Shown here one piece after another: positions 1,277 through 3,483 of a stretch of DNA of 64,000 bases (its first letter is position 1; every line of letters starts with the position of its first letter). This DNA is from Endozoicomonas sp. OPT23 (GTDB taxonomy: Bacteria; Pseudomonadota; Gammaproteobacteria; Pseudomonadales; Endozoicomonadaceae), in assembly GCF_009653635.1 (NCBI RefSeq), contig NZ_PPFD01000003.1, positions 824,955 through 888,954 on the forward strand, given 5' to 3'. Under the pieces are notes generated by a model that was given only the letters and a program-made list of their open reading frames with translations, was not told the DNA's origin and made no database searches. Made by a program: the position numbers and the translations under genes.

Positions 1277-1882
1277 ATGGAATTCAATACTTGGCTGGCT
1301 TTTCTGGCTGCAACCGCATTAATCAGTATCACTCCTGGTGCTGGTGCAGTGAACACTATGTCGACCGCCATTAAATTTGGCTTTGTGAAAACCCTGCCAT
1401 CAATCATGGGCTTGCAGGTTGGGTTGATTATTTATCTGCTTATTGTGGCTGCAGGGCTAGGGGCTATTCTTGCCGCATCAGAACAACTGTTTAATGTCAT
1501 CAAATGGTTTGGTGTCGGATATCTGGTTTATCTGGGAATAATGAAATGGAAAGAGTCTGAGTTGTCCAAAGGCTCGTGCCGTAATCAGAGTAAAAGAAAA
1601 TCATTTGCCAGTGCTGTTGTTGTAAACCTGACTAACCCTAAAGCTATCGTTTTTCTCGCTGCATTTCTGCCTCAGTTTGTACAACCTGATCTACCTTTAT
1701 GGCCACAGTATCTGATTATGGGCGTAACAATGATCGTCATAGATATTCTGGTAATGCTGGGTTATTCATCTTTGGCGTTAAGAATTACACCTGCTTTATC
1801 AAGGCATGAAAAATTGCAGAGCAGAGTTTTTGGTTCAATGTTTATCGCCTGCGGAGGGCTGCTGGCAGCCAGCCAGAAATAG
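1277..1882 (+). CDS. LysE/RhtB-family amino acid exporter
   Basis: A 201-residue inner-membrane protein of the LysE/RhtB superfamily, which exports amino acids or related metabolites with the proton gradient. The N-terminal SITPGAGAVNT matches the family's conserved TPG segment, and about six hydrophobic segments span the length; family members are usually 200-210 residues. A basic loop (residues about 92-108) precedes TNPKAIVFLAAFLPQF, a typical family stretch. No clear Shine-Dalgarno is seen before the ATG. The 3' end overlaps the convergent kinase gene by 41 nt. The substrate cannot be read from sequence. Confidence 0.85.
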   Translation: MEFNTWLAFLAATALISITPGAGAVNTMSTAIKFGFVKTLPSIMGLQVGLIIYLLIVAAGLGAILAASEQLFNVIKWFGVGYLVYLGIMKWKESELSKGSCRNQSKRKSFASAVVVNLTNPKAIVFLAAFLPQFVQPDLPLWPQYLIMGVTMIVIDILVMLGYSSLALRITPALSRHEKLQSRVFGSMFIACGGLLAASQK

Positions 1883-3017
1883 TTCTGAGCCCACTTACCC
1901 TGGGAGGATTCTTTGGAAATCTTGAAAGAGCTTCACTACTTGAAATTCGCTGGTTAGGATCACCTTTCAGCATATCGTGTAAAATTTCAGTGATTTTTGG
2001 ATCCAGGCCTCCTGCATATCTCTTCAGATACTTATCAACCCACACCTGTGTACCATCCTCTGTTATTTCACCTTCAAACACTTGCTCCCTATGGGAAGCA
2101 ATAGGCACACCGGTTAATAATTCAGCCAGAACCATTCCCATTGAGTGAACGTCCTGTTGATATGGGTCCGCTGACTCATACACCTTTGTATCACTCATCT
2201 GATAAGACAACCCCAGCATTTCAGGTGCCATATACCTTCGAGTCATACCTTCAGGGCTCTTGTAGGTAAGACTATAGGAGTGCTCTGTAGGAACTTTGAT
2301 GGCGGAACCAAAATCACTTATCTTGACCTCTCCCTCCACAAGCAGAATATTATCCGGTTTCAGATCCAGATGACTCAGCTTCTGTTTATGAAGGTATGCG
2401 ATCGCACTCAGAAGATTATATGCATGCTTATGCCTCTCGGAAGCATTCATCCCTCCTCGCCACTTTTTCTCTATTGAGCTGGTTAAACTGGAGCTGCCTT
2501 TCTCCATCACCAAACCTGTTGGTTCTTCATTAACATCCAGAATGTTGACGTATTCCGCTTCATCCGATGAACCGGTTTTCTCCAATGAGTCATTTAAGTC
2601 TTCACTTCTTACGACTACGACCTCACTTTCTTCTACACCAAAGCGGGATTTAATAATATGCGGGTGATTAAGCGTACTCAGTATCTTCTGCTCTTTTATC
2701 AACTCCTCAGTCTCATATGAGCTTATAGGTTTTTTGCGAGCCAGGCGTGTCCCCTCAAACTCTACTTCGCTGACAGACCCAAAACTTCCTGCCCCCAACG
2801 GGATATCCATCGCCCTTATGACTGGCTTGATAGTTTTGATCAGCCCGACCCTCTTACCAACCCACCTTAGTGGACTTACACACCAACGGCCAAAGCGCAC
2901 TAGTGCTTTCGCGGCCTTTTTTGCATAGGACAAATTTTCTGGCAGCGGAGAGGGGGTCGAGATTCTAGGCATTTTTTGATCCAACCAAGTGGTGATTCTA
3001 TATATGTCGGCCACCAT
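1842..3017 (-). CDS. Eukaryote-like serine/threonine protein kinase
   Basis: A 391-residue Hanks-type kinase. The glycine loop is LGAGSFGSV (about 74-82), the candidate ATP lysine is in RKKP (about 95-96), the catalytic loop is HLDLKPDN (216-223, Asp218), DFG is at 235-237 and APE at 264-266, so the catalytic set is intact. The arginine of HRD is replaced by leucine (HLD), as in kinases not needing activation-loop phosphorylation. No signal peptide, transmembrane segment, PASTA or other sensor domain is seen; about 70 basic residues precede the kinase fold. An AGGAGG lies about 21 nt before the ATG, too far to be ideal, so Met16 remains possible. No cognate phosphatase is nearby, and the substrate is unknown. 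Confidence 0.88.
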   Translation of the reverse strand: MVADIYRITTWLDQKMPRISTPSPLPENLSYAKKAAKALVRFGRWCVSPLRWVGKRVGLIKTIKPVIRAMDIPLGAGSFGSVSEVEFEGTRLARKKPISSYETEELIKEQKILSTLNHPHIIKSRFGVEESEVVVVRSEDLNDSLEKTGSSDEAEYVNILDVNEEPTGLVMEKGSSSLTSSIEKKWRGGMNASERHKHAYNLLSAIAYLHKQKLSHLDLKPDNILLVEGEVKISDFGSAIKVPTEHSYSLTYKSPEGMTRRYMAPEMLGLSYQMSDTKVYESADPYQQDVHSMGMVLAELLTGVPIASHREQVFEGEITEDGTQVWVDKYLKRYAGGLDPKITEILHDMLKGDPNQRISSSEALSRFPKNPPRVSGLRTISGWLPAALRRR

Positions 3018-3061: not shown

Positions 3062-3072
3062 ACTATGGCAAA

Positions 3073-3330
3073 TGTCTCACAAGGCAAAAGGATAACTTCC
3101 TGTTTTTCCTGAAAGCGGAAAGTGGATAATAGATTTCGTCAGCGGGGGACAGGAAGTCTGAAGTTCAGGAAGAACTAAAAGCTGACAGGGATAAGGAACC
3201 AGGCAGGATGCCCGGGTGGTCATGAAGGCCAAATAGATGCAGGAAGCAGTTCGGAACATGGAGTTCCGAGAAGCAGGAAGCGCCCTATATCAAGGATGAA
3301 GCAAAAAGCAGACCAGATGGTCTGTTTTTT
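3073..3330 (+). ncRNA. Candidate CsrB/RsmZ-type CsrA-sequestering sRNA
   Basis: This stretch has no convincing ORF but carries 14 GGA triplets on the + strand between 3090 and 3296, against only three on the other strand. Many lie in 5-nt hairpin loops: GAC-AGGAA-GTC (3148-3158), AGTTC-AGGAA-GAACT (3162-3176), GGC-AGGAT-GCC (3202-3212), TGC-AGGAA-GCA (3238-3248) and CGGAAC-ATGGA-GTTCCG (3252-3268). GTCAGC (3138-3143) pairs with GCTGAC (3181-3186) and encloses two of them. A strong terminator ends the unit. RNAs of the CsrB/CsrC/RsmY/RsmZ class use this design to titrate CsrA/RsmA. The 5' end is inferred from a TACTAT hexamer and is uncertain. No clear GacA/UvrY box was found. Confidence 0.8.
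3303..3330 (+). terminator. Rho-independent terminator of the candidate sRNA
   Basis: CAGACC, an AGAT loop and GGTCTG followed by TTTTTT, preceded by an A-run. Confidence 0.88.
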
Positions 3331-3364
3331 GTATGCGGGATCAACAGAATTTGAACGAGACCTG

Positions 3365-3393
3365 TTGACAAAAACCCCGAGCATACATAATAT
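3365..3393 (+). promoter_or_regulatory. Sigma70 promoter of tRNA-Thr
   Basis: TTGACA (3365-3370), a 17-nt spacer and TAATAT (3388-3393): the same hexamers and spacing as the tRNA-Leu promoter at 826. Confidence 0.85.

Positions 3394-3407: not shown

Positions 3408-3483
<76 letters not shown>

What the first reader, a model, noticed from the sequence alone, without database searches (positions are those of the whole stretch)
3073..3330. Likely CsrB/RsmZ-type regulatory RNA between a kinase gene and tRNA-Thr
Seen: 14 GGA triplets on the + strand within about 205 nt (first base at 3090, 3117, 3124, 3147, 3152, 3168, 3189, 3195, 3206, 3242, 3253, 3260, 3276, 3294), three on the other strand; five hairpins with AGGAA, AGGAT or ATGGA in a 5-nt loop; GTCAGC/GCTGAC closing two of them into one arm; an immediate strong terminator. 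Known: CsrB, CsrC, RsmY and RsmZ present GGA in loops to soak up CsrA/RsmA. Inference: this is the organism's CsrA-titrating RNA, or one of them. No protein gene explains this strand-biased pattern.
Basis: partly seen in the sequence, partly recalled or inferred. Interest (0 to 1): 0.85.

Follow-up and report, generated by a model that had tools for sequence, protein, structure and literature searches.

The report
A CsrB-type RNA sponge in Endozoicomonas
The stretch is very probably the gene for a small RNA that soaks up the regulator CsrA; it is a known kind of control RNA, found here in a group of marine bacteria, and the number of its binding sites differs several-fold between close relatives.

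Summary
The genome is Endozoicomonas-like. The RNA gene most likely runs from about 3138 to 3330 (193 nt, 11 GGA), not from 3073. Before it lie an activator box (3064-3081; 15 of 18 bases identical to published UvrY sites of csrC, 17 of 18 to Salmonella's in four relatives) and a conserved -10 element (3125-3130), 52 nt apart in 8 of 8 genomes.

An orthologue precedes tRNA-Thr in 10 of 10 held genomes of the genus. Its first arm (two GGA hairpins inside GTCAGC/GCTGAC) pairs in 95% of cells, with 13 compensatory cells; slid versions pair in at most 42%. Rfam's CsrB model matches at 37.4 bits (E 7e-9), the best place found in the genome, but below its gathering score of 71. CsrA, GacA and a BarA-like kinase are present. 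The RNA varies from 116 to 447 nt and from 4 to 29 GGA within the genus. Transcription and CsrA binding are untested. Verdict: a new member of the CsrB/RsmZ class; modest interest.

The parts
3064..3081 (-). Putative UvrY/GacA activator box, TGTGAGACATTTGCCATA read on the - strand
   Evidence: 15 of 18 bases identical to the Salmonella and to the E. coli csrC UvrY site (sites from PMC4682653); only match within 3 mismatches to either in the window, expected 0.09 and 0.06; only place in the own genome within 1 mismatch of the pattern TGTGAGACATTNNCCATA; centre 52 nt before the -10 block in 8 of 8 genomes
3125..3130 (+). Inferred -10 element GATAAT
   Evidence: ATAATA invariant in the 8-genome promoter alignment; no promoter with a good -35 was reported here by the scan, as expected of an activator-dependent promoter (inference)
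3138..3330 (+). CsrB-type small RNA gene (193 nt, 11 GGA); start inferred from the -10 and the conserved GTCAG
   Evidence: Rfam CsrB 37.4 bits, E 7e-9 over 3127-3334; orthologues and covariation
3138..3186 (+). First arm: GTCAGC (3138-3143) with GCTGAC (3181-3186) closing two AGGAA hairpins
   Evidence: 95% of cells paired, 13 compensatory cells, slid structures at most 42%
3187..3303 (+). Variable array: GGA loops at 3206, 3242, 3260 and (weak) 3276, GGA in linkers, and one degenerate ATGAA loop (3222-3226) where G001 has AGGAA
   Evidence: folds and sequence comparison
3308..3330 (+). Intrinsic terminator GCAGACC-AGAT-GGTCTG-TTTTTT
   Evidence: fold; similar terminator before tRNA-Thr in the 10 genomes of the genus
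3365..3393 (+). Likely separate promoter of tRNA-Thr, TTGACA-17-TAATAT
3408..3483 (+). tRNA-Thr(TGT), next gene downstream

Best explanation
The locus is a CsrA-sequestering small RNA gene of the CsrB/RsmZ type. Phosphorylated GacA/UvrY binds the box at 3064-3081 and activates a weak sigma-70 promoter (-10 at 3125-3130). Transcription starts near 3138 and ends at the terminator at 3330. The RNA presents GGA in short hairpin loops and linkers, several CsrA dimers bind them, and CsrA is drawn away from its mRNA targets, so that signals seen by a BarA/GacS-like kinase relieve CsrA control. Shown here by sequence: the elements, their conservation, the covariation, and the presence of the protein partners. 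Inferred: transcription, GacA control, CsrA binding and titration.
For: Rfam CsrB 37.4 bits, E 7e-9 in the stretch, E 1.8e-8 and best in the genome, next place 15.8 bits (103 of 225 candidates scored). Orthologues at the same place before tRNA-Thr in G000-G007 and in G008 and G009. A model of the first arm finds it in 10 of 10 held genomes of the genus and 9 of 12 of genus g7; 8 of these 19 genomes were not in its training set. First arm: 114 of 120 cells paired (95%), 13 cells with change on both sides, 0 of 500 shuffles reach either; slid versions at most 42%. AGGAN flanked by at least 3 Watson-Crick pairs: 52 of 82 in eight RNAs (4 of 7 in the window's) against 7 of 388 elsewhere in the window. 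UvrY-type box: 15 to 17 of 18 to the two csrC sites in the six long-RNA genomes, 12 to 16 in the four compact ones. CsrA, 66 aa, one gene found, near-identical over its first 56 residues to a solved CsrA homologue; GacA over the NCBIfam cut-off, beside uvrC; a kinase with the BarA sensor domain.
Against: No expression or binding data. The Rfam score is below the gathering score of 71 in 37 of 37 genomes searched. At the orthologous place CsrB is not matched at E up to 1 in G002, G005 and G007, nor at E up to 0.1 in G008 and G009 (L087, L088). A GGA-rich tandem array that is not a proven CsrB, that of G013, gets 44.4 bits, so the score alone proves little. With a loose definition of the loop (4-8 nt anywhere round GGA) the contrast is weaker: 6 of 11 in the window's RNA against 27% of 1566 elsewhere. 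Three of the 11 GGA are buried. 13 of 500 shuffles reach the number of pairs with a change on both sides and 431 of 500 the number of further pair types. The BarA-like protein was read only over 662 aa, cut by the locus end, and is below the full-length cut-off (474.8 of 890).
Confidence: 0.93

Rival explanations
1. A leader or processing element of tRNA-Thr: the hairpins and terminator act in cis on the tRNA transcript.
For: tRNA-Thr follows in 10 of 10 held genomes of the genus, 56 to 78 nt after the terminator's first five T in the eight measured.
Against: A promoter-like site for the tRNA (TTGACA-17-TAATAT, 10 of 12) lies between terminator and tRNA. In genus g7, 7 of 9 loci with the RNA show no tRNA-Thr (about 1.5 kb held on each side, less where contigs end). 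Hairpin number varies widely.
Confidence: 0.03
2. A non-functional tandem hairpin repeat (satellite-like), rich in GGA by composition.
For: The GGA count alone is reached in 16 of 5000 shuffles; hairpin number changes quickly between species; a satellite-like GGA array in G013 also matches the CsrB model.
Against: The model of the first arm finds one locus in the genome; fixed place, fixed distance to a conserved box, compensatory changes.
Confidence: 0.02
3. A GacA-controlled hairpin RNA that acts on something other than CsrA, for example by base pairing with mRNAs.
For: CsrA binding has not been tested.
Against: The repeated units are CAGGAAG and CAGGATG in loops, as described for CsrB, CAGGA(U/A/C)G (PMC7652899, passages), and stems vary while loops stay.
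Confidence: 0.02

Closest known systems
CsrB/RsmB family (Rfam RF00018)
   Same: Repeated CAGGA(A/T)G in loops, UvrY-type box upstream, own terminator; significant model match
   Different: 37.4 bits against a gathering score of 71; 193 nt against a 356-position model; the first two hairpins are enclosed by a conserved GTCAGC/GCTGAC arm
Salmonella and E. coli csrC promoters (UvrY inverted repeat)
   Same: Activator box identical at 15 of 18 bases in the window, 17 of 18 to Salmonella's in four relatives
   Different: Box centre 65 nt before the inferred start and read on the other strand; in E. coli the csrB box is centred at -183/-182 and the csrC crosslinking region lies between -223 and -143 (PMC4682653, passages)
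RsmY and RsmZ/PrrB (Rfam RF00195, RF00166)
   Same: The compact clade (116-117 nt, 4-6 GGA) resembles them in size and site number (recalled)
   Different: No match at the locus in the own genome; only weak RsmY matches in two relatives (23.4 and 20.7 bits)
Shewanella CsrB1 and CsrB2
   Same: Predicted from AGGA/ARGGA motifs and a UvrY box, then shown to depend on BarA and UvrY (PMC3171408, passages)
   Different: Two genes of about 420 bp there; one locus found here

Membership tests
CsrB/RsmZ class of CsrA-sequestering RNAs | Several GGA in loops of short hairpins | tested here: met
   8 of 11 GGA mostly unpaired; 52 of 82 AGGAN in eight RNAs with at least 3 flanking pairs against 7 of 388
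CsrB/RsmZ class of CsrA-sequestering RNAs | Hairpins conserved by compensatory change | tested here: met
   8 genomes; 11 genomes; first arm only
CsrB/RsmZ class of CsrA-sequestering RNAs | UvrY/GacA box upstream | tested here: met
   by likeness to the csrC sites; the symmetric consensus TGTAAGN6CTTACA is met at only 7 of its 12 fixed bases in the window (13 of 18 counting N)
CsrB/RsmZ class of CsrA-sequestering RNAs | CsrA and GacA in the same genome | tested here: met
CsrB/RsmZ class of CsrA-sequestering RNAs | Binds and titrates CsrA | not testable with these tools
   needs a gel shift or pull-down
CsrB/RsmZ class of CsrA-sequestering RNAs | Transcribed, and dependent on GacA | not testable with these tools
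   needs RNA data
Rfam RF00018 CsrB | Score at or above the gathering score of 71 bits | tested here: not met
   37.4 bits in the window; best relative 55.3 bits
Rfam RF00195 RsmY and RF00166 PrrB_RsmZ | Model match at the locus in the own genome | tested here: not met
   no match listed at the locus at E up to 1

The most novel reading that the evidence does not exclude
In Endozoicomonas this one locus is the only Csr sponge, and its capacity is set by gain and loss of hairpins in place (4 to 29 GGA, 116 to 447 nt) under a conserved promoter, so that species tune CsrA activity by sites per molecule and not by gene copies.
Probability: 0.35. Interest if true: 0.5.

Novelty: new member of a known kind. 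Interest (0 to 1): 0.36.

Why it matters
Endozoicomonas are common symbionts of corals and other marine animals, and the Gac/Csr switch governs lifestyle changes in many gammaproteobacteria (both recalled). Rfam at its own threshold does not call this RNA, so the likely antagonist of CsrA would be missed in these genomes by that route. A conserved promoter with a hairpin array that varies seven-fold in GGA number makes the relation between site number and CsrA control testable among close relatives.

Tried and rejected
A second CsrB-type RNA in the own genome was sought and none was accepted. CsrB's next place (15.8 bits) is the end of a reading frame plus a terminator, by eye. R1's second place lies inside the same RNA and the other six are at E 2.37 or more (150 of 3104 candidates scored). 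RsmZ's best place (21.6 bits, E 0.014; L101) has five AGGA, none flanked by more than one pair, and a terminator; I did not accept it but cannot exclude it. RsmY's best place (26.7 bits, E 3e-4; L134) has no AGGA on the matched strand. Of 193 places within 3 mismatches of a relaxed box (97 + 96; reversed control 92 + 119) I looked at the flanks of the 15 with 1 or 2 mismatches apart from the locus itself (L105-L119): at most two CAGGA in 320 nt; for L119 the position used was off, so it was not properly checked.

The GGA count as main evidence was rejected: it is only moderately above composition. A protein gene was rejected: the longest stop-free stretches on the + strand run from 29 to 99 aa in eight orthologues and RNA lengths vary.

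The G013 match to CsrB (44.4 bits) was not counted as an orthologue: it is a 20-base tandem array and I saw no box. The weak R1 matches in G013 and G021 (E 0.019 and 0.063) were not counted either. In the g7 table G015 was not located by my script and was dropped; G026 and G020 had no terminator of the pattern used, so their lengths were not used.

Literature, in the held library only: Endozoicomonas with CsrB and with RsmZ gave 0 papers; with CsrA 2 and with GacA 1, of which I saw the listings only; their titles are on other subjects. Two wider searches gave general papers. I found no earlier report of this RNA in these searches; other papers were not searched.

Full report
What is there. GGA density is the highest on the + strand of the window, but composition explains part of it: the RNA is 65% purine and 16 of 5000 shuffles of 3073-3330 reach 14 GGA. 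The hairpins are the real signal. Among eight orthologous RNAs, 52 of 82 AGGAN motifs are flanked by at least three Watson-Crick pairs (33 of 82 by at least four), against 7 of 388 (1 of 388) in the rest of the window; in the window's own RNA it is 4 of 7. With any loop of 4-8 nt round the GGA the contrast is weaker: 71 of 107 GGA in the eight RNAs (6 of 11 in the window's) against 27% of 1566 elsewhere.

Where the gene begins. Eight promoters align. Two blocks are conserved: a box ending in CACA, and an ATAATA element followed by TCAG. The box centre is 52 nt before the -10 block in 8 of 8 genomes, and 64 or 65 nt before the inferred RNA start in 10 of 10 genomes of the genus. So 3064-3137 is read as promoter and the RNA as starting near 3138. 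Folded from 3073 the best structure lacks the full arm; folded from 3133 it shows it. The start site is an inference; no end mapping exists here.

The activator box. Read on the - strand the box is TGTGAGACATTTGCCATA in the window and TGTGAGACATTGACCATA in G002, G003, G004 and G006. A study of UvrY/SirA sites (PMC4682653, passages) gives TGTGAGACATTGACCATT for Salmonella csrC and TGTGAGACATTGCCGATA for E. coli csrC. Identity is 15 of 18 to both in the window, and 17 and 16 of 18 in the four relatives; in the four compact genomes it is 12 to 16. Within 3 mismatches the window has just this one match to either site, with 0.09 and 0.06 expected. Within one mismatch of TGTGAGACATTNNCCATA the own genome has only this place. 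The palindromic consensus TGTAAGN6CTTACA is met at 7 of 12 fixed bases in the window; four g7 genomes carry TGTAAGACATTTGCCACT 66 nt before the RNA, which has one half of it exactly.

Relatives. A covariance model of the first arm (R1, 11 training sequences) finds the arm at E 2.5e-9 or better in 19 of 37 genomes of the family: 10 of 10 in the genus, 9 of 12 in genus g7, and 0 of 15 in the other genera apart from two weak matches (E 0.019 and 0.063) that I did not count. Eight of the 19 genomes were not in the training set. The RNA precedes tRNA-Thr in 10 of 10 genomes of the genus, and a tRNA-Leu pair lies upstream in 9 of 10, at differing distance; in G004 the pair was not in the 9.5-kb stretch held. 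In g7 the pair was seen upstream in three of nine loci (L082, L089, L094) and tRNA-Thr downstream in two (L082, L083).

Structure under selection. On the 8-genome alignment the arm (15 pairs) has 95% of cells paired, 13 cells changed on both sides and a covariation score of 0.405, none reached in 500 shuffles; slid by 1 to 3 columns it pairs in at most 42% of cells. With three g7 sequences added it is 92.1%, 18 cells, and at most 38%. I wrote the structure after looking at these sequences, so it leans towards them; the compensatory cells (for example the U-A in place of C-G in the closing stem of G005 and G007) are the stronger part. Two measures are weaker: 13 of 500 shuffles reach the number of pairs changed on both sides, and 431 of 500 the number of further pair types.

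Family models. Rfam CsrB matches 3127-3334 at 37.4 bits, E 7e-9, and is the best place in the genome at E 1.8e-8. Orthologues reach 52.3 (G001), 43.3 (G003), 42.4 (G004) and 55.3 bits (G006). All are below the gathering score of 71, so Rfam's own rule does not name them. At the orthologous place G002, G005 and G007 give no CsrB match at E up to 1, and G008 and G009 none at E up to 0.1. The five g7 loci given to the same search score 22.9 to 28.1 bits. The locus is therefore filed in the class by anatomy and context, not as an Rfam RF00018 member by the curated rule.

The rest of the circuit. The genome has one CsrA gene by Pfam search, a 66-aa protein over the NCBIfam CsrA cut-off and near-identical over residues 1-56 to a solved CsrA homologue. 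A UvrY/SirA/GacA protein over cut-off lies just upstream of uvrC on the same strand. A protein with the BarA sensor domain PF09984 has BarA as its best NCBIfam match over the 662 aa held, below the full-length cut-off.

How it most likely works. GacA, once phosphorylated, binds the box and turns on the promoter; the RNA is made, folds into GGA hairpins, and takes CsrA off its targets. CsrB of E. coli carries 22 GGA and repeated CAGGA(U/A/C)G elements in loops or other single-stranded parts (PMC7652899, passages), the same unit as here. Similar predictions in Shewanella were borne out by Northern blots and by barA and uvrY mutants (PMC3171408, passages).

What is unusual. Under one kind of promoter and terminator, RNA length (inferred start to the fifth T) and GGA number run from 116-117 nt with 4 to 6 GGA (G005, G007, G008, G009), through 190-289 nt with 11 to 17 (G000-G004), to 447 nt with 29 (G006). 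No second sponge was accepted in the own genome with three Rfam models, R1 and the box. This does not exclude a divergent one, and the other genomes were not searched as fully.

Verdict. A conserved CsrB-type RNA gene that Rfam's threshold misses; a new member of a known kind. It is not surprising in a gammaproteobacterium with CsrA and GacA, but useful.

Noticed in passing
L067 (G041, same order, other family), about 1660-2140: The box TGTAAGACATTTGCCATA is followed about 160 nt downstream by a 67-base unit repeated 4.2 times, with TCGAC-AGGAC-GTCGA hairpins and further AGGA, then a terminator-like end; no Rfam match at E up to 0.1. It looks like another, independently expanded CsrB-type RNA.
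   Followed up: partly
L049 (G013, genus g5), - strand about 5760-4500: An array of a 20-base unit with 62 CAGGAA in 1260 nt and stops in all six frames; it matches CsrB at 44.4 bits, but a 200-nt piece folds as one long rod and I saw no box.
   Followed up: partly
window 1842-3017 (-): A Ser/Thr protein kinase gene sits between the LysE-type exporter gene and the RNA; in G002-G004 and G006 exporter-like sequence runs up to the promoter, so the kinase may be an insertion in this lineage.
   Followed up: partly
L105 about 1400-1480 and L134 about 1540-1605: A similar hairpin stretch (ATTCATA..CTAT.CCCC...GGG.TAGC...TTAATATTC) stands at both places of the own genome, perhaps a small dispersed repeat.
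   Followed up: no
L101 about 1500-1638 (own genome): Best RsmZ match of the genome (21.6 bits, E 0.014): purine-rich, five AGGA but not in paired loops, ending in a strong terminator.
   Followed up: partly
L098 (G032, genus g7), about 1500: A second, weaker R1 match (26.8 bits, E 0.003); the sequence is not GGA-rich and looks like coding DNA by eye, so probably chance.
   Followed up: partly
L048 6317-6402 (+) (G007): Match to Rfam sRNA-Xcc1 above its gathering score (67.7 against 53 bits).
   Followed up: no
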